Positions 592 to 37,710 of a DNA stretch of 39,814 nucleotides are shown here, piece by piece (positions within the stretch are counted from its first letter, which is position 1; each line of letters starts with the position of its first letter). The notes beneath the pieces were generated by a model. It was not told the DNA's origin. It saw only the letters and a program-made list of their open reading frames with translations, and made no database searches. A program made the position numbers and the translations under genes. The stretch is from IMG/VR virus record IMGVR_UViG_3300022752_000165, positions 1 to 39,814 of that record; one strand, 5' to 3'. This DNA comes from a virus.

Positions 592-1626
592 TTAACACGC
601 GCCGCCGTAGGCCTTTTTCTCAACCCCGCCACCTTTTTTGAAGGTACCGGACTGCAGGTTGTTTTTGACCGGGTTCGACACGAAATGCTTGGGCATGGCT
701 ACGGGTTTGCCTGAATCAACAAGCCCCCCCGTAGCGAAGTGCTTTTTTATTGCACCACCTTTCTTACCGCCACCTGGAGGACCATCGCGTCCAACGGTGT
801 TGAAGTAACCAAGATCAACATCGCTGTCTTTCTTAGCTTCACCGCCTTTCTTGTAGCCGCCGGCGTTGCCCTTCTTCACTTCGCCGGTTTTGGTTCCCGT
901 AGGTCCGGGATGTGATGTTGAAACATTATTCATCACACCGCCGCCCTTGGCATAGGCCATGCCACCACCCATCATGCCGCCCTTTTTCATGGGAGCACAT
1001 TTGCCCATCATGCCACCATATTTCATGGCCATGCCACCCTTCTTGTAGCCGCCAGGCTTGCCCATCACAACTTCACCCGTTTTTTTAGGCGTGTGATTTT
1101 CATTTTGGGCAGTTGTCATTTTGGTTTTGACGTAACCCTTAGCGCCGCGCTCTGATTGTGCTACTGGAAGAATGCCGCTTTTAGGTACTGAACCGCCTTC
1201 TTTGAAGCCGCCCTGACCCATGACGACACCACCCGTCTTCAGGCCTTTGTGAGCCTTGGATGCTGCCTTCATCTCATGCTTTTGAAGCTTGGCCTTCACG
1301 CGTCCGATTTCCTCAGACTCGTTACGGATCTCCTTCTCAAGCTTGCCACCCTCCTTCATCATCGGGCGATTCATCATCGGACGAGCCATCATGGCTTTGC
1401 GGCGCATGGCCATCGAGGGACGTGCAGGTGCGCGGCCAGGCAAAACACCTTCGCCCATCTGCATACGGGTTGGAGCAGGTGCTGCTGACAATCCTGTCAT
1501 CACACCACCATCCATCATTTTGTGTCCATGCTTTTTGCTATGCGACACATGACCACCTTTCTTCAGTTTTAACTCCACTGAAGGCTCTGTGGTATACATC
1601 TTCACCATCGGCTTAAACTGACCCAT
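592..1626 (-). CDS. Lys/Gly/Met-rich KKGG-repeat virion protein
   Basis: A 344-residue, very basic, low-complexity protein. It contains at least three imperfect repeats of the form TG-x-V-x-x-G-x-x-GGYKKGG (near residues 130, 185 and 250), plus runs of Met, Gly and Lys (residues about 70-90 and 200-230). It ends in KKAYGGAC. The start at 1626 is set by GAAAGGAACAG just upstream. Repetitive Lys-Gly-Gly proteins of this kind occur in head/tail blocks of many uncultured podovirus-like genomes; their role is not known. The strong positive charge would allow DNA binding inside the capsid, which is inference. Predicted to be largely disordered. Confidence 0.75.
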   Translation of the reverse strand: MGQFKPMVKMYTTEPSVELKLKKGGHVSHSKKHGHKMMDGGVMTGLSAAPAPTRMQMGEGVLPGRAPARPSMAMRRKAMMARPMMNRPMMKEGGKLEKEIRNESEEIGRVKAKLQKHEMKAASKAHKGLKTGGVVMGQGGFKEGGSVPKSGILPVAQSERGAKGYVKTKMTTAQNENHTPKKTGEVVMGKPGGYKKGGMAMKYGGMMGKCAPMKKGGMMGGGMAYAKGGGVMNNVSTSHPGPTGTKTGEVKKGNAGGYKKGGEAKKDSDVDLGYFNTVGRDGPPGGGKKGGAIKKHFATGGLVDSGKPVAMPKHFVSNPVKNNLQSGTFKKGGGVEKKAYGGAC

Positions 1627-6423: not shown

Positions 6424-6606
6424 TTACTTTTTGGGCTTAACGGCGGCCCCGGCCAGGGCACCTCCTTTGCTGCTGGGGGCGGAGGGGGCTTTTCCGCCTT
6501 TGGACTGCAGGCTCGTGCCGTCGAGCGCCGCACCCATGGCGATGCGCTTGTGGTAGGGGACGGCTTCGAGGTCTTTGATGCTGTTGTTACTGGATGGTTG
6601 GGCCAC
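6424..6606 (-). CDS. Small Ser/Ala/Lys-rich hypothetical protein
   Basis: A roughly 60-residue basic protein ending in SSKGGALAGAAVKPKK, with two Lys-Gly-Gly motifs. The frame opens with TTG at 6612, but GTG at 6606 is preferred because the AGGAG at 6615-6619 sits 6 bp upstream of it. The start overlaps the end of the portal gene (stop 6587-6589). The basic low-complexity C-terminus resembles the KKGG motifs of other virion proteins in this window. Function unknown. Confidence 0.6.
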   Translation of the reverse strand: MAQPSSNNSIKDLEAVPYHKRIAMGAALDGTSLQSKGGKAPSAPSSKGGALAGAAVKPKK

Positions 6607-9148
6607 GATCAACTCCTAAGTTACGTTGGGCTTCGTTTTGAAGCCGAATGGCAGTCTCGAACTGCTCGGTGCGCAGCTTGTCGTCCTGTTGAGTCAAGCG
6701 TGCGGTTTCTATGCGCTCGCGGGTCAGGTTGTCCGCAGCGTTCAACGCCACGTCCAACTGGTCGCGAGTGGCGGCGCGTTCCTGCTCGGCGGTCAGGCGG
6801 GCCACGTCGAGCTGCCCCCGCTGTTGCATGTCCGCCCCTTTGAGCTGCATCTCCGCCTGATCGCGCTGGGCGCGGCGCTGGGTTTCGGCCAACGACGTTT
6901 CCCGCAGCACTTGCGCTTCGGGCGGCAACTGGGGTTGCGGGGTGAGCTTTTTCATCGCCTCGAGCAGCTGTTGAACCAGCGGCAGCACCTGCCCGAAGGC
7001 TTTTTCGGAGTCTAACTTGACGTGCTGCGACACGAGGGCGTAGGTCTTGTCGATTTCGGCGGTGAGCGCTTTGTCCTCGTACTCGTGCTCGGTCACGGGC
7101 TCGCCGCGCAGCTTAGTCACGTAACCTTGAGAACGGTTCAAGTACCAGAGGATCATGTGCTGCTTGATATGCTCTAGCGCTCTTGGCAGGTAAATGCTTG
7201 CCATGATTGGATTGCCCCCAAAAGCGGGGTTCAACGCAAAATCCAAGTGCGCCTGAATATGCGCCAAGTGATCTTGATGCATATAGGCGTAGCCGTTCTG
7301 CCCCAGCGCCATGGCGACGTTCTCATCCACGGCGGAAAGCTCGTTGGGCGAGGGCGTATTCTTGAGCAGCTCGTTGTAGGCGGGGATTTTCAGCTGTTTC
7401 AGCAGGCGCTCTTCAACGGCGCGGGCGTCATACAGGTCGGGGCGCTGGTCGGCACGCGCCATGACCGCCTGAATCTGCGCCATGCGCTGGGTTTCGCTGA
7501 AAATGTGCGGATCAGACACCGGCACCACGTCCGTATTGCGTTGAAAGTCCGCCTCCTCAATCTCGAGGTCCGCCACCACCTCGCCTTTACGCATGTCGCT
7601 CAGGTACCAACGGTTCAACCGCCCCAGAACCTTCAAAAGTCGGCCCTGCGCGTCGTGCAGCCGGGCGTGAATGGCGCTGAAAACCGCTGCCCCCTGCTCA
7701 ATGAGTGCCTGCGTGGTGCCGACGGGGGTTTGAGCGCTGACGTCGGCGATTTTCTCCTCCGCCGTCGTCACGACGCCCTTGGTGGCCTTGTCAAGCCAGC
7801 CTAGCAGCTCAAAAAGCACCTGCGACGGCGGGTTGAAAGGCATCGGCATGGCGATCTTTTTAATGTCATCAACGCCGGGCGCGGCCTCAATCTCAACGAC
7901 TTGCGTAATGTCGACCTGTTGGCTCTGGCCGCTGACCTTTGCACCCTTCAACTTGAGCATGGCGGGGGCGTTATTAATGTGCGCCGAGTCGAGCAGGGCT
8001 CTCAACGTACCCGTGAGGGCCGCGCTCAGGCCTCCAATGAGGTGCGGCAGGCCGATTGCGTAGGCGCCCCTCCAGGGAATGAACTTGTACTCAATGACCC
8101 AGTCCAATTTAGTCATCGTGTCGTCGCCGCTCTCCCAGTTGCGGTACAACCCCACCACTTCGGACTCGAGTTCGTCAATCATCATCACGTACGGGGCCAT
8201 CTCGCCCCCGCTGTCGCGGTCATCTTCAAGCTCAAGCCACGTGTAAACGTGATACACACGGCGCTCGCCGTCGGTGTTCTCGTCCCATTTGCGCCCCTCG
8301 ATCTTATTGTTGGCTTTTTCGGCCTTGGTTTCCTCGGGTTCCATTGACGCCCGCACCAGGTCAATGTCCCGGTACAGGCCGGAGGTGATGCGCCGTTTGA
8401 ATTCCCACTCCGTAATGTCGTGAATCTCGGTGGCTCGGGGCGCGGTGTAAAAGTTCGTGGCCGAAAAGGGGATGATCACCTTGTCGATCGGCAAAAACTC
8501 GGCGCAAGGGCGCTTTTTCTGCTCATCGTACCAGAGCTTCAAGTACTGCGACCCGCCCAGGGGCAGCTGCGTGAGGAGTTGCTCCTGCTCGTCGCGGAAC
8601 TCTTCAATCTGCTCGGTGAGTTGCCAGTTCATCCAGTCGCGCTTGCGCTCGGCGCGTTGGGTTTTTTCCTCATCATTAGTGCCGAGGATCTTGGTTTTGA
8701 CGGGGCCGTCAGGCGGGAACAACTCTTTTATGGCCCGGCTCGCAAAATCGACACAGGCCTCCGCCATCGCGGGGTGCACAACCTTACTCGCCCCCATGAA
8801 GTTAGCGCCGCCCGGCGCGTCCTTACCCATCCCGGTGCGCTTCAGGCCCTCTTCGTACTGCTTGTCGCGGTCCTCGCGGGCTTGCTTGTCCTTTTTGATG
8901 AGGTCAATGTACCGCATCGCCAACGTGCTCAGGTCGAGGGGGTCGATCACCTCCGCCAGGTTTTGATAAAAATCCTCGTCCTCGAGCGGGCCGTTATCCG
9001 GCTGCAGGTTCACGCGCACCGACCCATCGGGCAGCTCCTCCAACTCGGCGTCATCGCCCACGGTGAGCTCCTCTTCAAGCTCCACGGTGACGTCCCCGGT
9101 GGGTAGCTCGTCGTCCTCGAGCTGAGGTTGCGGAAATTCAATAGCCAT
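6587..9148 (-). CDS. Portal protein
   Basis: An 853-residue protein, large even for portal families of short-tailed phages. It has an acidic N-terminal stretch (DDELPTGDVTVELEEEL), a central body with typical portal segments (LWYDEQKKRPCAEFLPIDKVIIP; VIEYKFIPWRGAYAIGLPHLIGGLSAALTGTLRALLDSA; TTAEEKIADVSAQTPVG) and a long Gln/Arg/Glu-rich C-terminal coiled coil (about residues 700-845). The portal forms a dodecameric ring at one capsid vertex, with the terminase docking on it. The position next to terminase and head genes supports the call. The start at 9148 has no strong ribosome site seen, but the N-terminal charge is consistent. Confidence 0.85.
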   Translation of the reverse strand: MAIEFPQPQLEDDELPTGDVTVELEEELTVGDDAELEELPDGSVRVNLQPDNGPLEDEDFYQNLAEVIDPLDLSTLAMRYIDLIKKDKQAREDRDKQYEEGLKRTGMGKDAPGGANFMGASKVVHPAMAEACVDFASRAIKELFPPDGPVKTKILGTNDEEKTQRAERKRDWMNWQLTEQIEEFRDEQEQLLTQLPLGGSQYLKLWYDEQKKRPCAEFLPIDKVIIPFSATNFYTAPRATEIHDITEWEFKRRITSGLYRDIDLVRASMEPEETKAEKANNKIEGRKWDENTDGERRVYHVYTWLELEDDRDSGGEMAPYVMMIDELESEVVGLYRNWESGDDTMTKLDWVIEYKFIPWRGAYAIGLPHLIGGLSAALTGTLRALLDSAHINNAPAMLKLKGAKVSGQSQQVDITQVVEIEAAPGVDDIKKIAMPMPFNPPSQVLFELLGWLDKATKGVVTTAEEKIADVSAQTPVGTTQALIEQGAAVFSAIHARLHDAQGRLLKVLGRLNRWYLSDMRKGEVVADLEIEEADFQRNTDVVPVSDPHIFSETQRMAQIQAVMARADQRPDLYDARAVEERLLKQLKIPAYNELLKNTPSPNELSAVDENVAMALGQNGYAYMHQDHLAHIQAHLDFALNPAFGGNPIMASIYLPRALEHIKQHMILWYLNRSQGYVTKLRGEPVTEHEYEDKALTAEIDKTYALVSQHVKLDSEKAFGQVLPLVQQLLEAMKKLTPQPQLPPEAQVLRETSLAETQRRAQRDQAEMQLKGADMQQRGQLDVARLTAEQERAATRDQLDVALNAADNLTRERIETARLTQQDDKLRTEQFETAIRLQNEAQRNLGVDRGPTIQ

Positions 9149-9162
9149 GATGTTCTCGATTC

Positions 9163-12100
9163 CTATTTGCGATGACCCTTGAACAACAACTCATCAGCTA
9201 TCAAGGTGGGGTGCTTTTCGATTTTAACCTTCCCGCCCCGACGGTACGGTTGTGCCTCGTCAGGGGTGAGCCGAGCACGACCCGACTCGATGGCTTGACG
9301 GGCGTTGCGCTGTAGCTCGGCCTGAGTCGTGAAAGGCATCTCAGACCCTAGGGCGTTGTTGACGGTGTCCATCTCATAGCCCGCCGGAACTGGCCCCATC
9401 CCCAACGCCGACTTAATGTGCGCCATGGGGGCGTTGACCAGCTCGTACCCTTGCCCCAACCCCCGAGCCAACGACGGGTTGAGCTTCTGAGCGAGTATGC
9501 TCGAGGCAATGATATGCCGAGCGGCGTCGCGTTTGACTGCGTCCTTCGGGAACATCTCCCGTGAAACGGTCTGAGCGTAGATCTGAAGGTTGTCAAGCCG
9601 AGGGTCGGGCAGGCCACGCACTTCGGGTTCGTTGGGGTCGGCGGAGGCTTTGACTTTGCCGCCGCCTTTGTAACGGCGTTGGCGCACGGCGGTGTCTCGG
9701 ATGAGGTCCTTCATGACGTCGGGGTCTGAGGCGTAGATGCGGTCAACCTGATTCAACATTACCGGACGCCCGGTCGCAAAGCTACCCTCTTCAAAGGAGC
9801 GCTGCCACGGCACGTTGAGCCCCACGTCCTCATCGGGCAGGAGGCGGTTGCCCCGCCGCAGCTGCGCACGCAGGATGGGCAGTTGCGCGGCTAGCTCGGG
9901 GTCGTGCCCCAACATCTCGAGCAGGTCTTCGCGCTTGGCGAGGGCCAGCTGCGGGTCGGAGTAGAAATACGCCCCACCCACGTGCGCCGGTGCGTAGCCC
10001 TGAATGTTGCCCGCGCCAACGTCACGATTGGTCAGTGCGCCGGTTTTCAAAATGCCCGGTGTGTCCTGCGTAATGTGCCAGCCCGTCACCTCCGGCCCGG
10101 CGGGTCGGCCAATGTTTACGTTGAGGTTGGCTTTGCCGAGCTCCTCGAGCCGGCGCACCTTGCGTATTTCGCGGTCGATCACCTCGCCGAGGGACTTTGC
10201 GGACTTCGCGCCCTTCACCACCCCCGCCACCGGGGGAAACGCCCCGAGCGCCTGCGCCAGTCGGAACAGCTCGCTGGGGTTGGTGGGTTCGGCGGGTTTC
10301 TCACCCATGAACCCCCGCACCACGTCTCCTAGCACTCCGGTTGAACCTTGCCCGTAGCCGGGCAGGTCCGACGCCTTGCGCCGGGACTCGATGGGCGGTC
10401 GGCCGCCGTCTTTCAGCTCGACTGCGCCGCCAGCTTTCATGCCCTCTTCAAACTTAGGTCGGAGAAGTTCTTCAAGATTCGAGGAGGATAGATATTCTCC
10501 GTAACGCTCGCGGGCTTGCTTTACAAGTTCTGGGTGTAATTGAAGATCTTGCAACCGCTGTAACCCCGTGTTCTTCAAGTCACCTACCCTACTCCAATTG
10601 CCGCTGCGCACAAAATCCTGAACAAAGGGCAAGTATTCTTCCTTTGGAGCCTTATTGCCTTTGCCTTTAATCTGAACAATTTCATCTTCAAACTGCCCTA
10701 ACTCTGGCAAAAATGTTTTTGGATCAAATCGCATGAGAGGGTCAAGAACATTACGTCTTTCATAATCAGCACGAATCTCAGGCGGCAATTGATTAGCCGT
10801 TAACAACTGGTCAGTATCTTCTCTACGCGGGGTTACCTCAATCGTCACATGCGGCTCACCCTTCTTGTCGCGCAGGCTGTAAATGCGGCTGTTTCCCTCT
10901 ATAACATCTGGGCAGTAGCCACCGACGCAATGCCCCATGACTTCGCCTTCATATTTGAGGGCGTCTTCAAGTGAGACGTAATGCTTGTGCTCGGTGTAAG
11001 CCTTGGCGGCTTTCTCGGGTGTGTCAAACAGCACGCGCCCGGTCTTAGGGTCTTTCCAGGATAGTTTCTGCCCCGGCTCAAGAATTGAGTACTTGCCGGC
11101 GTTTTGAATCAGCATGCTGCTCACGTCGACGGGCTCTGTGGGGGCTTTCAACTCCACCCAACGCAGGCCTTTTTGATTAGGCTCTGCGGTTCCCGGAACA
11201 GTTTCGTATGTTTTGTGCTCAAACGTGCCGGGGTTACGCGCTCTCAGGGCATCGGCCTCGGCTTTCTGCGCCGCCCGCCACTCGTTGATCTTTGCGACCC
11301 GCTCGACGGCCTGCGGCACCGTGACCTTTTCAAGCTGCTGCGGGGTCAGCCGCAACGACGCCGGCAGCCCCGAGTTGGGGTTCATGGCGTTGGTCAACTC
11401 GTCGATGATGTGCGGGAAGCCAAGCCCGGACATATCTGCGTTCAGATTCATGCCGTACACGGGCGTATCAGGCGACACTTTCTCAAGCCAAGGATTTCTT
11501 TCTAACTCACTTTTGATCGGCAAAAACACTTCGGCTTTATCAGGCTGTATGCTTACGTCAGCAAGAGACTCCCAGTCCCTGGCGAGATTTGACTTGCCTA
11601 AGCCTTCTGTTGGATAACCGCTAGCCTCTCGGCTTTCACGCAGTGTTCGACTCTCTTTTTCAAACCCATATGGATTTGGGGTATAAAAAGGCGGCTCAAA
11701 GTGCAGCGTGCCACGCTCAGCAAGCGCCCGGACGGGGTCCTCAGGCGTTGCCATTTCGTTCTTGACATACTTGGTGAGCTTGGTGTCAATCCACTTGTTA
11801 AGTGCAGTTGATCGCTCCGCAAGCGGCAAGCGTTGCATTAACTGCGTGTAAACCTCGCCCTTCTGTGGCTTCTCAAGTTCGGATCGGATAAATGCAAGTT
11901 CTTGCTCAGGGTTTTGATGGCGTTTCAACGACCCAAGAGTTTTCTCAGCCGAAAACGAGCCAGCGAGCCAGTTGCCGCCCTTGGGCTTGATGACACCCGC
12001 TCCCAGTGCGCCGAGACCCGTAACCACATCAGGCAAAGCAGAAGCTACCTTGCCTGGCACTGCTGCCAGCCCCACGGCGGGCATGTTGGCGAGGGCCTGC

Positions 12101-12291
12101 CCGGTGCGGTAGCCTTCGCCACCAGGAATGATGGCTTCTGCTCCAAGCAATCCACGACCCACATCGCCCATCTCCTGAAAGGCTCGCATGCCCGGCCCCT
12201 CGCCGTAGCCCTTGAGCTGGGAGGCCCGGCGGCGTCGAGCGCGGAGCTCCTCGAGTTCCTCGGGGCTGGGGGGTAGTAGGCTAGGCGGCAT
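9163..12291 (-). CDS. Large multidomain virion-associated protein with PcfJ-like and ADP-ribosyltransferase-like segments
   Basis: A 1042-residue protein between terL and the portal. Four parts are visible. (1) Residues 1-615 contain MGHCVGGYCPDVIEGNSRIY (residues 452-471) followed by SLRDKKGEPHVTIEV, the core signature of PcfJ-like proteins. (2) A linker at about 618-645 has AGGAVELKDGG and then RRKASDLPGYG, which repeats the N-terminal RRRRASQLKGYG. (3) About 735-880 begins TGWHITQDTPGILKTGAL with GGAYFYSDPQLALAKR, which looks like an ADP-ribosyltransferase-type fold, a tentative match. (4) The C-terminus (895-1042) has a DAARHIIASSILAQK region resembling a family found in exported phage proteins. 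GG(K/A)V motifs sit at the module borders. A packaged and injected protein is the likeliest role. Its 3' end follows terL by an 11-bp overlap. Confidence 0.7.
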   Translation of the reverse strand: MPPSLLPPSPEELEELRARRRRASQLKGYGEGPGMRAFQEMGDVGRGLLGAEAIIPGGEGYRTGQALANMPAVGLAAVPGKVASALPDVVTGLGALGAGVIKPKGGNWLAGSFSAEKTLGSLKRHQNPEQELAFIRSELEKPQKGEVYTQLMQRLPLAERSTALNKWIDTKLTKYVKNEMATPEDPVRALAERGTLHFEPPFYTPNPYGFEKESRTLRESREASGYPTEGLGKSNLARDWESLADVSIQPDKAEVFLPIKSELERNPWLEKVSPDTPVYGMNLNADMSGLGFPHIIDELTNAMNPNSGLPASLRLTPQQLEKVTVPQAVERVAKINEWRAAQKAEADALRARNPGTFEHKTYETVPGTAEPNQKGLRWVELKAPTEPVDVSSMLIQNAGKYSILEPGQKLSWKDPKTGRVLFDTPEKAAKAYTEHKHYVSLEDALKYEGEVMGHCVGGYCPDVIEGNSRIYSLRDKKGEPHVTIEVTPRREDTDQLLTANQLPPEIRADYERRNVLDPLMRFDPKTFLPELGQFEDEIVQIKGKGNKAPKEEYLPFVQDFVRSGNWSRVGDLKNTGLQRLQDLQLHPELVKQARERYGEYLSSSNLEELLRPKFEEGMKAGGAVELKDGGRPPIESRRKASDLPGYGQGSTGVLGDVVRGFMGEKPAEPTNPSELFRLAQALGAFPPVAGVVKGAKSAKSLGEVIDREIRKVRRLEELGKANLNVNIGRPAGPEVTGWHITQDTPGILKTGALTNRDVGAGNIQGYAPAHVGGAYFYSDPQLALAKREDLLEMLGHDPELAAQLPILRAQLRRGNRLLPDEDVGLNVPWQRSFEEGSFATGRPVMLNQVDRIYASDPDVMKDLIRDTAVRQRRYKGGGKVKASADPNEPEVRGLPDPRLDNLQIYAQTVSREMFPKDAVKRDAARHIIASSILAQKLNPSLARGLGQGYELVNAPMAHIKSALGMGPVPAGYEMDTVNNALGSEMPFTTQAELQRNARQAIESGRARLTPDEAQPYRRGGKVKIEKHPTLIADELLFKGHRK

Positions 12292-13741
12292 AGGGGTTCA
12301 CCTTGGGTCCGGTGTAGTCGTCCGAGTCATTGAGGGCGTCAATGTAGTCCTCGGGGTCGTAGTCGTCGCGGGGAGCGGGGTCAATGTTCAGCCACCCGGC
12401 ATCGCGCAGGTAACGGAGCGCCTGCGAGAAGGCGTCACAGAAGTCATCGTGCGTGGCGTTGGGGAAGCTGCATATCTGCGTGACCATAGCCTCCGCCCAG
12501 TCGCGCACGTAGCCGGCCCGCACCGAGGACTCCGGGACGTAAACTCGGCCGGCCTTGACAATGTTGGCGACGATGCTCAGGCGCTGCACCTTGTCGGCCC
12601 GACCGGGGTTGTAACCGCGCACCGGAACCCGCGCCCGCTGCAGGTCCTGAATCAGCGGGATGCCGGCAGCCTTGTCTTCAACCAGCACCAAGTCCACCCG
12701 GCGGGCCTCGCGCCCCTCGCCGAAGATGATATCGTACTCGTCCGTGACTTTGCTCTTCAGGTCAGGGTACTGCAGGTGATCCTGCCAAGCGTCAATCACC
12801 AACACGCACATACTGCCGTCCTGGGGCTTGAACACTCCGAACGTAATCGACGCGGTGGGGTCGTTCTGCGTCTTCTCCGTATGCGCGCAGTCGTACGACT
12901 GGATGATGAACTCAAGCCGAGGCAACGGACGGTCCGCCGCCCACAGTTTGAACCAGTCGCGCTTGACGATGCCGCCCTCCTCGACATCAATAATTTCTGC
13001 GTGGATTTCCTGCCGCCCCAGGTTGGTACCCTCGTAGCTGAGGATCTGCGCCTTGAAGTTGTCGCTCAGGTTATCAAGGTTGGTGTACGTGCTGGCGGTA
13101 GTGAGCGCGACGTCCGCGCCCTCGCGGCCTATCAGGTCAACGATGAGGTCGCGGGGTTTGGGGGTGGTCGTGATGAGCAGGCGGCTCTTCATGTTCGGGA
13201 GCTTCAGGCGCACCCCGAACTGAATCTGATCCCATGCCTCTTGCAAGTACTCCCACGCGGCCAACTCGTCGCACCAGCCGCCGTGGAACTGCGGCCCCCT
13301 AAATCTCTCGGGCTCCGAGGCCGGGATGCCCTTGATCAGGCTGCCATTGATCAAGCGCAGTTCATGCAGGGCCTTGTTGTAGTCCTCCACCAGCGGGGAA
13401 GGGATCACGGTGAGCAGGCCCGAGTCTCCCTCAAAGCACGTACCCCTCACATCGGCCGAGGTCGGCGCAGCGACCAGCCATCGAGTGCTCGGGTAGCTCC
13501 ACGCCCACCAGCCGACCTGCTCGGCGGCGGTGCGGGTCTTGCCCGCTCCGCGTCCGGCCAACATCAACCACACCGACCACCAATCCCCCGGCGGGGGCTT
13601 CTGATGATCGTGCGCCACACTCAACCACAACGCCCGCCATGCCCACGCGACCTGCTGATCGGGGGTGAGCTGCGTGAACTGCTCGCGCAACGCCGGGTCG
13701 CGCAGCAACCCCGCTAAAACGCCGGCTTCACTCGCCCCCAT
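12281..13741 (-). CDS. terL: Terminase large subunit (ATPase/nuclease)
   Basis: A 486-residue protein that pumps DNA into the prohead and cuts the concatemer. Walker A is GRGAGKT at residues 63-69. Walker B is HGGWCDELA with D158 and E159, and the coupling segment is LLITTTPKP near residue 190. The C-terminal RNase H-like nuclease is marked by acidic residues in IQSYDCAHTEK, VLVEDKAAG and THDDFCDAF. Length is normal for the family. The start at 13741 overlaps the end of terS by 14 bp, a normal terS-terL arrangement. The protein acts at the portal vertex. Confidence 0.93.
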   Translation of the reverse strand: MGASEAGVLAGLLRDPALREQFTQLTPDQQVAWAWRALWLSVAHDHQKPPPGDWWSVWLMLAGRGAGKTRTAAEQVGWWAWSYPSTRWLVAAPTSADVRGTCFEGDSGLLTVIPSPLVEDYNKALHELRLINGSLIKGIPASEPERFRGPQFHGGWCDELAAWEYLQEAWDQIQFGVRLKLPNMKSRLLITTTPKPRDLIVDLIGREGADVALTTASTYTNLDNLSDNFKAQILSYEGTNLGRQEIHAEIIDVEEGGIVKRDWFKLWAADRPLPRLEFIIQSYDCAHTEKTQNDPTASITFGVFKPQDGSMCVLVIDAWQDHLQYPDLKSKVTDEYDIIFGEGREARRVDLVLVEDKAAGIPLIQDLQRARVPVRGYNPGRADKVQRLSIVANIVKAGRVYVPESSVRAGYVRDWAEAMVTQICSFPNATHDDFCDAFSQALRYLRDAGWLNIDPAPRDDYDPEDYIDALNDSDDYTGPKVNPYAA

Positions 13742-34663: not shown

Positions 34664-36085
34664 TCAAGGCCCAAAATAGCCTTGATAGATTGACGGGGCG
34701 GGTAGTTGCCTACCGGCGGCTAGAGCGCCGTAACCTTGAGCCTGACTGACGGCGCGTTCTTTAGCTTTATCATACAGGTAGAGTGTCAGCGGAGAAGCTG
34801 CAGCTAGCGCAGGACCTCCGACGCGGGTCTGCGGAAAAGGCAGGGCGGAAGCCAACGACCCCGCCGCACCTACACCAGCTATCAACGCACCAGGAATATC
34901 ACCTTCTTGAGCTCGGCCGTAGGCTTCCTGGCCCAGCTCGGCAGCGCCCAAACCACCTAGTAGCCCAAAAGCCCCAGGCATAACTCGTGCGCCAACGTTC
35001 ATAGCCCTAGAAGCACGTGCTGAGAGCGGGGCTCTCGGCGGCGGGGGTGCGGGAGGTGGAGGTGGGGGTGCGGTGGTGCCTCGGGTGGGCGGTATATCGG
35101 CGTAAACTTGCCCGCTGGGTAGCATGACCCCCGACGGCGTTGACGTCATACCGGGCAGTCGTGAAACGAGCGAACGCGAATCACCTGAGACTACGCCTCG
35201 CCTTTTTAACTCTTCAATAATCCGAGCTTGTTCATCAGCTGCGGCGGCCTGCCGAGCGGTGGCCTCGTTGTAAGTGGTTTGGCGAGCCCGGCCAGTTGCG
35301 CCCTGGTCAGTGGTGCCTTGCATCTGCCGAGTGTGCATAGGGTCGGTAGGAATCGGTGGCGGGGGCTGCCCAGCGGGGGCTGCGGAAGGTGCGGCGGCCC
35401 TGGGTTGAGCGGGCGGGGTTCTTGCGGATTGCGCCTCGTACTCACGACGCAACCCCTCACCCAGGACGCTGAGTTTGCGCCCGGCTAATGCGCCGCCGAC
35501 GTCAATGCCAGCACGAACGGCCTCCGGGTATTCTTCAACCGCCTGCGCGGCTACGCCTTTTGCGTCAGCAAACAGCTTTCCGGCTTTTTCTCTGAGTGAA
35601 GGTTCTTTAGTTTCGTCACTTTCCTGCTCGGTGCCGATTTGGGTGTAGCCTTCAAAACCTTTTAAACTATTGATGTCTCTCAAATAAGCTTGAGTTGACT
35701 CGGGTAATTGGTTCTTTTCTGGATTTGTAAAAAACGGATGATCAGGGCCGGCGTTATATGCCGCTGCGGCCATCACGGCTGTGTTCGGATAGCCTTGAAA
35801 TCGATCAAGATGCTTTTTAAGAATTTGCAATCCGATGTCGATGTTTTTCGTTTCATCAGTGAGATCTTTGGGATTAAAACCGTACTGCTTCGCAGTGCCG
35901 GGCCGAACCTGCATAATGCCAATTTCGTCAAGGCTGCCCGGATTATTAGTGAATTTATTTTCTCTATAAGCTAGCGCTAACGCAAGGCGCGGGTCAACAC
36001 CTAACTCAACGGCCCGATTACGAATAAGCTCCGCAACACGCTGCTGAGCGGGCGTGAGTGTTTCATTAGATTTTTCTTCAGCCAT
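34664..36085 (-). CDS. Virion protein with N-terminal lytic transglycosylase (SLT) domain
   Basis: About 473 residues. Residues 10-140 form an SLT lysozyme-like domain: LALAYRENKFTNNPGS (catalytic Glu at residue 42), IGIMQVRPGTAKQYG and AAAAYNAGP. This is followed by a long, Pro/Ala-rich, disordered region (PPPPPPAPPPP and RTPPAQP) and a Gly/Ala/Leu-rich C-terminus. It most likely acts as an injected, cell-wall-opening virion protein. The ATG at 36085 overlaps the previous stop as TGATG. The gene is the last of the minus block and ends just before the terminator. Confidence 0.83.
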   Translation of the reverse strand: MAEEKSNETLTPAQQRVAELIRNRAVELGVDPRLALALAYRENKFTNNPGSLDEIGIMQVRPGTAKQYGFNPKDLTDETKNIDIGLQILKKHLDRFQGYPNTAVMAAAAYNAGPDHPFFTNPEKNQLPESTQAYLRDINSLKGFEGYTQIGTEQESDETKEPSLREKAGKLFADAKGVAAQAVEEYPEAVRAGIDVGGALAGRKLSVLGEGLRREYEAQSARTPPAQPRAAAPSAAPAGQPPPPIPTDPMHTRQMQGTTDQGATGRARQTTYNEATARQAAAADEQARIIEELKRRGVVSGDSRSLVSRLPGMTSTPSGVMLPSGQVYADIPPTRGTTAPPPPPPAPPPPRAPLSARASRAMNVGARVMPGAFGLLGGLGAAELGQEAYGRAQEGDIPGALIAGVGAAGSLASALPFPQTRVGGPALAAASPLTLYLYDKAKERAVSQAQGYGALAAGRQLPAPSIYQGYFGP

Positions 36086-37710
36086 CACGGTTTTCCTTGC
36101 AAGATGTTGCCTATCGCCCGGTTAGCGGCATCATAATTGGGAGCACCCGCCGGTCTCTGCGCCGGGGTTCGACCCGCCGCGCTGCCGCCCGGTTTGCGGG
36201 CAGCCTGCGCAATCAGGTCATCACGGATGACTTTAGCCTTGTCATCAAGCTCTTTGAGCGCGTTCTTGTAGGTGTCAGATTCTTTAAATTCGTACACTGA
36301 CTCGCCAAGTTTACGAGCGTTGATCCACTCCGACCGAACGGTCTTGTCGAACTCAGCTCGGGCGATGATGAGTCGGGCTTTTGCTGCGGCAGCCTCCGGG
36401 GTGTCGCTAATTGAAGGTCCGAGCAGGCGGGCAACTTCGCCCTCCATGTTTGAAACCGCGCCCTGCCCGGTCAGATACGCCCTGCGGTAGTTCAGCTCAA
36501 GCATGGCCTGCTCGCGGGCGGCGAGCCTTCGGGCGGCGATCTGCTCCGGAGTGCCTTTGAGTTTCGCTACGGCGTCATCAATACCGCCGAACCCTATCGA
36601 ACCGCTCGGGGTTGTGAGCCCGGTTTGAACCGCGCTAGCAATAGCGTTCAAGACACCCGGATCAGCAGTGACGCCGAACCCGCCTTTAGTCTTCGGGTTG
36701 GTTGACAAGTCAAGCAACGTCTCAGCTGAAGCCCGCAGTTGATTTGACAAGTTTCCCGCCGCCATGATGGCGTTTTCTTCAGTGATAGCATCTTTGGCGC
36801 GGCCTTTGAGCAGCTCACCGCGTGCTTCGATTTCTTCCCTGCTCTGTAGGCCTCTCAAAAGCTCACGCAACCGAGCGTCTCGCGCCGGCCCAGCGGGCAT
36901 ACCTCCGATTTCGGTTCGAATTTTCTCAGCCTGCAGAGGTGTCATCGGAAATGAGCCTTCAATACCCGGAAATGTAAACTGCTCTTCTTTCTCGGGCGCT
37001 CTAAACAAAACGCGATTGTTACGCGTATCAACTAGGTTTCCGCCTACGACCGTGATATTTTTACGCTGGTCTTCACGTATGCTCAAGATAGCCTTACCTA
37101 ACGCTTGAACACGCGGGTTGTTGCTGATAGCCATCGCGCTCAGCTGATCAGGCGTGAAACGATCAATCGTCGCGCCTTCTGTCGCGGCGGGGGTCGTTTG
37201 AGCTGGCGCTACGGCTGCTTCAGCAGGACGAGGCGCCAACGGTGCGCCTACTTGAAGCGCTGGTGCGCCCTCGGCAGCTGCGGGAGCTTGAGCGGGCTCT
37301 GAAGCAGCCGGCGGGGCGGTGGGCGCTTGGCCGGCAGCTGGGGCGGCTCCTGGGGGCTTAAGCAACCCGCGCATCATCTCCTCATCGCGGGCGGACTGCT
37401 GAGCGCCGAGCTTTGCAGCGGCCAGGTCGCGGCGCATAGCGATATTTTCAAGACGGCGCTTTTCCTCGGCCTCCTGAACGGGGCCAACCGCCGCCGCTAC
37501 GTTGCCGATCGATTCGCCGAACTTTCCGGTCTTTGTAGGGGCTAAAAACCCCTGCGCCATCGCGAGCAGCACCGGGTCAAAAAGCCGCTGCCGGTTCGTT
37601 AGGGCGGCTTCAAGCTCCTCTTGAATTTTGAGGTACTCTTGAAGGCTTTTCTGCTCAGCCGGGGTTTCGGCGTAAAGCGATGGGGTCAATGCCCCTCTAG
37701 ATGTACTCAT
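36085..37710 (-). CDS. Ala/Pro-rich internal virion protein
   Basis: A 541-residue protein. The N-terminal half is helical and charged (SLQEYLKIQEELEAALTNRQ), followed by a Pro/Ala-rich spacer (APAAGQAPTAPPAASEPAQA, residues about 110-170), and then a long helical region (RLLRGLQSR-type repeats, LAAREQAMLELNYRRAYLTG). No enzymatic motif. Its location before the lysozyme protein and after other virion genes suggests an ejected internal or tail-associated protein. Confidence 0.7.
   Translation of the reverse strand: MSTSRGALTPSLYAETPAEQKSLQEYLKIQEELEAALTNRQRLFDPVLLAMAQGFLAPTKTGKFGESIGNVAAAVGPVQEAEEKRRLENIAMRRDLAAAKLGAQQSARDEEMMRGLLKPPGAAPAAGQAPTAPPAASEPAQAPAAAEGAPALQVGAPLAPRPAEAAVAPAQTTPAATEGATIDRFTPDQLSAMAISNNPRVQALGKAILSIREDQRKNITVVGGNLVDTRNNRVLFRAPEKEEQFTFPGIEGSFPMTPLQAEKIRTEIGGMPAGPARDARLRELLRGLQSREEIEARGELLKGRAKDAITEENAIMAAGNLSNQLRASAETLLDLSTNPKTKGGFGVTADPGVLNAIASAVQTGLTTPSGSIGFGGIDDAVAKLKGTPEQIAARRLAAREQAMLELNYRRAYLTGQGAVSNMEGEVARLLGPSISDTPEAAAAKARLIIARAEFDKTVRSEWINARKLGESVYEFKESDTYKNALKELDDKAKVIRDDLIAQAARKPGGSAAGRTPAQRPAGAPNYDAANRAIGNILQGKP

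What the first reader, a model, noticed from the sequence alone, without database searches (positions are those of the whole stretch)
9163..12291. Two-module virion protein with PcfJ-like and ART-like parts
The N-terminal module has MGHCVGGYCPDVIEGNSRIY; the second starts again with RRKASDLPGYG, mirroring the protein's own start RRRRASQLKGYG, and each has a GDV-x-RG motif. This looks like a fusion of two proteins that shared a leader, with GGKV-type linkers between parts. A packaged, injected multi-effector (possible ADP-ribosyltransferase) between terL and portal is unusual.
Basis: partly seen in the sequence, partly recalled or inferred. Interest (0 to 1): 0.75.

Follow-up and report, generated by a model that had tools for sequence, protein, structure and literature searches.

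The report
Swappable multi-part phage effector protein
Between its DNA-packaging motor gene and its portal gene this phage carries a protein built from exchangeable parts, one of which is predicted to fold like enzymes that tag molecules with ADP-ribose; related phages carry different parts there but usually keep the same short end-tag, which may be the label that gets such proteins loaded into the virus particle.

Summary
The ORF (minus strand, 9163-12291, 1042 aa) has a repeated leader, a PcfJ core, a second module and GGKV-type linkers. There are three units, not two: leader1 + PcfJ core; leader2 + ADP-ribosyltransferase-like (ART) module; and a C-terminal DUF6973-like module. The ART module matches no Pfam family, but its AlphaFold model (pLDDT 80.6) retrieves almost only ART-superfamily structures, DarT first.

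In phages selected by portal similarity, the TerL-portal interval nearly always holds a large protein, often with unrelated modules: PcfJ, ART-PolyVal, an ADP-ribosyl exotoxin-type domain, RadC, GNAT, DUF7178. Synonymous divergence shows the modules are exchanged by recombination. In phage L006 the ART unit is deleted in frame.

Unrelated slot proteins share a C-terminal tag (KKGGxVxI..N.D.M.LEL..K): 70 of 101, against 4 of 193 other large ORFs. Tag copies also separate modules. The same GG box recurs about 8-17 times in near full-length copies of one conserved protein encoded downstream of the capsid gene.

Best explanation: a virion-delivered "polyvalent" effector, a known concept (Iyer 2017), here a hypervariable cargo slot with a newly noticed candidate packaging or processing tag. 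ART fold: well supported. Delivery: inferred. Tag function: hypothesis.

The parts
9163..12291 (-). Slot protein P0001, 1042 aa, between terL and portal; overlaps the end of terL by 11 bases, stops 14 bases before portal
   Evidence: same overlap in relatives L003, L006, L008
12007..12255 (-). Leader 1, residues 13-95
   Evidence: similar to leader 2, score 93 vs null maximum 68
10462..12006 (-). PcfJ core, residues 96-610; HCVGGY at 454-459
   Evidence: Pfam PF14284; AlphaFold pLDDT 84.0 with 35 sequences; BFVD top hits PcfJ-like phage proteins
10396..10437 (-). GG box / linker 1, residues 619-632 (KAGGAVELKDGGRP)
10147..10395 (-). Leader 2, residues 633-715
   Evidence: precedes other modules in L003, L005
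9682..10146 (-). ART-fold module, residues 716-870; invariant H739, Y775, D820-E821-D822
   Evidence: alignment A2; AlphaFold pLDDT 80.6 pTM 0.78; Foldseek and VIA hits DarT, Tpt1, other ARTs; dN/dS 0.09-0.19
9646..9672 (-). GG box 2, residues 874-882 (YKGGGKVKA)
9256..9639 (-). C-terminal module, residues 885-1012, DUF6973-like (below Pfam threshold)
   Evidence: PF22322 E 0.012, all 6 relatives
9166..9246 (-). C-terminal GG tag, residues 1016-1042 (YRRGGKVKIEKHPTLIADELLFKGHRK)
   Evidence: tail profiles find only slot ORFs among 2841; 70/101 vs 4/193
12281..13741 (-). Terminase large subunit
   Evidence: Pfam Terminase_6N/6C
6587..9148 (-). Portal protein
   Evidence: phrog_1216
592..1626 (-). 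MGQFKPM protein rich in the same GG box (16 by the call-67/107 counts), downstream of the capsid gene; candidate partner

Best explanation
It is a phage polyvalent effector made late, with the head genes. It is a string of three exchangeable cargo units, most likely packaged in the virion and delivered into the host with the DNA. The middle unit is an ADP-ribosyltransferase-fold enzyme that probably transfers ADP-ribose from NAD+ to a host or defence target (protein or nucleic acid). The PcfJ unit has an unknown activity, possibly acyl transfer, since its C-terminal half models like a GNAT. The gene lies in a fixed terL-portal slot whose contents are replaced by recombination between phages, as expected of an arms race. 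Shown here: module boundaries, module exchange, ART fold in prediction, purifying selection, the shared end-tag. Inferred: packaging, injection, NAD+ chemistry. Hypothesis: the GG-box tag recruits cargo to the head, or marks cleavage between units.
For: ART fold: AlphaFold model pLDDT 80.6; Foldseek top hit DarT (prob 1.00), followed by other ART-superfamily chains including Arr and Tpt1; nearly all 50 VIA rows are ARTs, best Z 8.1. H739, Y775 and D820-822 are invariant down to 37% identity. dN/dS 0.09-0.19. Setting: 11-base overlap with terL, 14 bases before portal, same in close relatives. Module exchange: window vs L006, portal dS 0.237 and C-terminal module 0.227 but PcfJ 1.08; window vs L002, terL dS 1.01 but ART 0.146; L006 carries an in-frame deletion of the ART unit with a leader2 relic. 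Slot contents in relatives: PcfJ in 11, ART-PolyVal in 8, plus ADPrib_exo_Tox, RadC, GNAT among 42 representatives. Caulobacter phage RW and Roseobacter CRP-902 have the operon without a slot protein, so it is accessory. ARTs near terminase/portal are predicted to be head-packaged (PMC9503650; PMC5512222).
Against: No virion proteomics and no activity data. No Pfam or PHROG hit for the window's ART module, and profile comparison with ART-PolyVal and Arr was negative. The best VIA Z is 8.1, at the edge of what common folds reach. The third catalytic residue is uncertain. A late operon position fits delivery but also fits a late intracellular role.
Confidence: 0.62

Rival explanations
1. The protein acts inside the producing cell late in infection, for example against superinfecting phages or host defences, and is not packaged.
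For: Operon position only shows likely late co-expression; related effector-type domains may be used against incoming elements (PMC5512222).
Against: Overlap with terL and tight linkage to portal are conserved across relatives. The same short tag on unrelated cargo, and the same box repeated in a protein next to the capsid gene, suggest a common assembly-related function.
Confidence: 0.2
2. It is a structural head or connector protein (for example an inner-body protein), and the enzyme-like folds are domesticated without activity.
For: Fixed place between terL and portal; the slot is nearly always filled.
Against: It is absent from Caulobacter phage RW and Roseobacter CRP-902, which keep the rest of the operon. 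Its sequence turns over while terL and portal stay similar. Putative catalytic residues are invariant.
Confidence: 0.12
3. The ART-like module is not an ART; AlphaFold gives a common alpha/beta arrangement.
For: No sequence-profile support; Foldseek E-values only about 1e-3; best VIA Z 8.1.
Against: The hit list is almost exclusively ARTs from several distinct families rather than a mixture of folds; conserved H and Y fall in predicted strands of the model.
Confidence: 0.12
4. The C-terminal GG tag is only the conserved flank of the portal gene, kept because recombination joins upstream of it, and is no signal. (This rival concerns the tag only, so its probability is not exclusive with the others.)
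For: In close relatives the last 25 codons belong to the conserved block that includes portal.
Against: In two-gene slots the tag profile matches near the end of the second gene and also inside the upstream PcfJ gene, which ends about 2 kb before portal. Tag-like copies occur inside slot proteins between modules. 12 of 19 unrelated last modules carry a C-terminal box.
Confidence: 0.3

Closest known systems
Phage polyvalent proteins (Iyer et al. 2017, PMC5512222)
   Same: Large multidomain protein with disparate predicted activities, encoded among virion genes; ARTs are the commonest protein-modifying enzymatic domain in that class
   Different: The window's ART module does not match the ART-PolyVal family; the word PcfJ does not occur in that paper's text as held; the GG tag, leader repeats and slot turnover were not found described in the passages read
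DarT (toxin of DarTG) and other ART-superfamily enzymes (Tpt1/KptA, Arr)
   Same: Predicted fold, best structural match (DarT Z 8.1 over 139-146 residues)
   Different: No detectable sequence-profile similarity; part of a virion-operon multi-unit protein, not a toxin-antitoxin pair; substrate unknown
T4 Alt and T4 internal proteins with capsid targeting sequences (PMC9026906)
   Same: Variable cargo delivered from the head, with a short shared peptide proposed to sort diverse proteins into the capsid; Alt is an ART
   Different: The T4 signal is N-terminal and removed by the gp21 protease; here the shared tag is C-terminal and between units, with no protease identified; Alt belongs to the R-S-E clade
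PcfJ-like proteins (PF14284)
   Same: HCVGGY...IYSLRD...HVTIEV block above the Pfam cut-off; BFVD structural matches to phage PcfJ-like proteins
   Different: A much longer conserved core (about 515 residues, starting near KGGNW) than the 147-position Pfam model

Membership tests
Phage polyvalent proteins | two or more domains with disparate activities in one polypeptide | tested here: met
   PcfJ, ART fold in prediction, DUF6973-like (weak)
Phage polyvalent proteins | encoded with late/virion genes of a terminase-portal phage | tested here: met
   terL and portal flank it directly
Phage polyvalent proteins | packaged and injected with the DNA | not testable with these tools
   needs virion proteomics and an entry assay
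ART superfamily | ART core fold | tested here: met
   in prediction only:
ART superfamily | NAD+-binding/catalytic triad | tested here: inconclusive
   H739 and Y775 invariant and in predicted strands; an acidic D820-E821-D822 cluster is invariant, but its place as third residue was not verified on coordinates
ART-PolyVal (PF18760) | profile match | tested here: not met
   no Pfam match at E 5; hhalign probability 0.1; works like an ART but is not filed here
DarT | sequence-profile match | tested here: not met
   no Pfam match at E 5 in any of 10 members; structural similarity only
PcfJ (PF14284) | score above curated cut-off | tested here: met
   30.3 bits vs 25; positions 76-124 of 147 covered
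GNAT acetyltransferases (PcfJ core, residues 353-578) | GNAT fold | tested here: inconclusive
   most of the 50 VIA rows are GNATs but best Z is 7.2 and Foldseek has no significant hit
GNAT acetyltransferases (PcfJ core, residues 353-578) | sequence-profile match | tested here: not met
   no GNAT family among the 25 families listed for 35 members at E 5
DUF6973 (PF22322) | score above curated cut-off | tested here: not met
   15.7 bits vs 27; resemblance only
T4-type capsid targeting sequence | N-terminal peptide removed by prohead protease | not tested
   the tag here is mostly C-terminal; processing needs mass spectrometry

The most novel reading that the evidence does not exclude
The GG box with its tail (KKGGxVxIxxNxDxMxLEL) is a general cargo address: a C-terminal and inter-unit peptide that sorts, or marks for cutting, unrelated effectors into the heads of a large group of aquatic phages, with the box-rich MGQFKPM protein as its assembly partner. 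The terL-portal slot would then be a natural plug-in site for virion-delivered enzymes.
Probability: 0.3. Interest if true: 0.82.

Novelty: new variant of a known kind. Interest (0 to 1): 0.62.

Why it matters
If right, one place in the genome can be read across environmental phages to find injected effectors, including enzymes such as this ART that family searches miss. It also gives a concrete candidate for how such phages sort very different proteins into their particles; the T4 capsid targeting sequence is the worked example found here. Both ideas can be tested with ordinary phage work.

Tried and rejected
ART module: Pfam at E 5 and PHROGs at E 10 gave nothing for the window copy; the PDB sequence search gave only chance-level hits; hhalign against ART-PolyVal and Arr (below shuffled controls) was negative. 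So the motif resemblance to Arr (H-Y-D and a S-[FY]-x-[ST]-x-x-P stretch) is kept only as a lead. No ART-module relative was found in the sequenced bacterial and archaeal genomes or in annotated phage records. GNAT reading of PcfJ: no sequence support. A literature search for a GGKV virion motif found nothing relevant. tblastn of a tail peptide in phage records gave no match, though 26 residues is near the limit of detection. The HTVC027P transcriptome paper gave no timing for its slot genes by the terms searched. A chance or artefactual duplication of the leader was rejected: relatives show the same two-leader layout.

Full report
What was checked. The open reading frame at 9163-12291 lies on the minus strand and encodes 1042 residues (P0001). 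It overlaps the end of terL (12281-13741) by 11 bases and ends 14 bases before portal (6587-9148); terL and portal were identified by Pfam and PHROGs. The window is a whole IMG/VR record of 39,814 bases. The two leaders are genuinely similar (score 93; 2000 shuffles gave at most 68).

Anatomy. Comparison with IMG/VR relatives splits the protein into leader 1 (residues 13-95), PcfJ core (96 to about 610), a GG-box linker (619-632), leader 2 (633-715), an ART-like module (716-870), a second GG box (874-882), a C-terminal module (885-1012) and a C-terminal GG tail (1016-1042). There are thus three units, not two. The PcfJ assignment is above the Pfam cut-off. The C-terminal module resembles DUF6973 below threshold (E 0.012, all six relatives).

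The ART module. Ten sequences down to 37% identity keep H739 (GWHIT), Y775 (GGAYFYS) and D820-E821-D822. AlphaFold gives pLDDT 80.6 and pTM 0.78. Foldseek against the PDB ranks DarT first (probability 1.00, E 1.2e-3), then other ART-superfamily chains, including Arr, Tpt1/KptA, RES and bacterial toxin A-subunits. VIA-align puts DarT and Tpt1 at Z 8.0-8.1, and nearly every row shown is an ART. Sequence profiles do not see this: no Pfam match, negative comparison with ART-PolyVal domains of related slot proteins and with Arr. dN/dS is 0.09 to 0.19 in pairs with the window at 68-97% identity, so the module is maintained.

The PcfJ core. With 35 sequences the model reaches pLDDT 84.0. Against viral predicted structures the top matches are PcfJ-like phage proteins. 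Against the PDB nothing is significant, but most of the 50 VIA rows are GNAT acetyltransferases over residues 353-578, best Z 7.2. The conserved Q-I-K-G-K-x-N stretch after a strand recalls the GNAT CoA loop; this is inference, with no sequence support.

The slot. Loci were also collected by portal similarity alone, to avoid choosing them by the slot (80 loci). Where the contig covers it, the terL-portal interval is nearly always filled by one or two large proteins, about 380 to 2150 residues, often without any similarity to the window's. Among 42 representatives Pfam finds PcfJ (11), ART-PolyVal (8), DUF7178 (2), RadC, ADPrib_exo_Tox and GNAT (1 each). Caulobacter phage RW and Roseobacter phage CRP-902 share the operon but have no slot protein, and show no box-rich MGQFKPM protein in the stretch read. 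The slot content is accessory.

Exchange of modules. Between the window and L006, portal dS is 0.237, the C-terminal module 0.227 and terL 0.308, but the PcfJ core 1.08 and leader 1 0.705. Between the window and L002, terL dS is 1.01 but the ART module 0.146. Different parts of one gene have different histories, which is recombination, not fast evolution. DNA alignment shows conserved islands with unalignable tracts between them at recurring borders. L006 reads GGAVELKDGGRPPIESRRK-VKAPANPNEPEVRG: a leader-2 relic joined directly to the start of the C-terminal module, an in-frame loss of the ART unit.

The tag. The box [KRED]x0-1GGx[VIML] occurs 329 times in slot proteins against 79 expected from shuffles. 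In 70 of 101 slot proteins it starts within about 45 residues of the C-terminus, against 4 of 193 other ORFs of at least 350 aa; these counts are not independent, but 12 of 19 groups with unrelated last modules carry it. Profiles built from the tails match only slot ORFs among 2841 non-redundant ORFs, at C-termini and between modules, and also near the end of the second gene in two-gene slots. The same box is repeated about 8 to 17 times in near full-length copies of a conserved MGQFKPM protein encoded downstream of the capsid gene (16 in the window). A plain reading as a portal-gene flank explains the close relatives but not the internal copies or the two-gene slots.

Interpretation. The closest concept is the phage polyvalent protein (PMC5512222): multidomain, encoded with virion genes, predicted to be injected, ARTs common. 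A later survey states that phage ARTs are often encoded near terminase subunits and portal and are likely packaged (PMC9503650). The T4 capsid targeting sequence, a short shared N-terminal peptide that sorts variable internal proteins, is the nearest functional parallel for a common tag (PMC9026906). Delivery and enzymatic activity are inferred here; neither was shown.

Verdict. A real and well-resolved example of a known kind, with two points that appear new: an ART that family profiles miss, and a shared candidate cargo tag across unrelated slot proteins.

Noticed in passing
592-1626 (-): MGQFKPM protein with 16 copies of the GG box also found in the slot proteins; homologues with the same start in 43 of the loci fetched, window included.
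   Followed up: partly
L006:4912-7197: Sister phage (portal 98%) with an in-frame deletion of the leader2-ART unit, leaving a leader2 relic.
   Followed up: yes
L039:3712-7155: Slot protein with PcfJ, the window-type ART module and an additional ADPrib_exo_Tox domain (PF03496, E 7.5e-10): two different ART-type domains in one protein.
   Followed up: partly
L035:1000-2652: Slot protein combining the window-type ART module with a Pfam ART-PolyVal domain.
   Followed up: partly
L122 (Caulobacter phage RW) 5247-5627: The terL-portal interval holds a tRNA-Val instead of a slot protein.
   Followed up: no
L138, L139: Relatives of the long PcfJ core in two metagenome-assembled bacterial genomes (Armatimonadetes, Chromatiales); phage contigs binned with them or prophages not distinguished.
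   Followed up: no
36085-37710 (-): 541-residue protein with no PHROG match.
   Followed up: no
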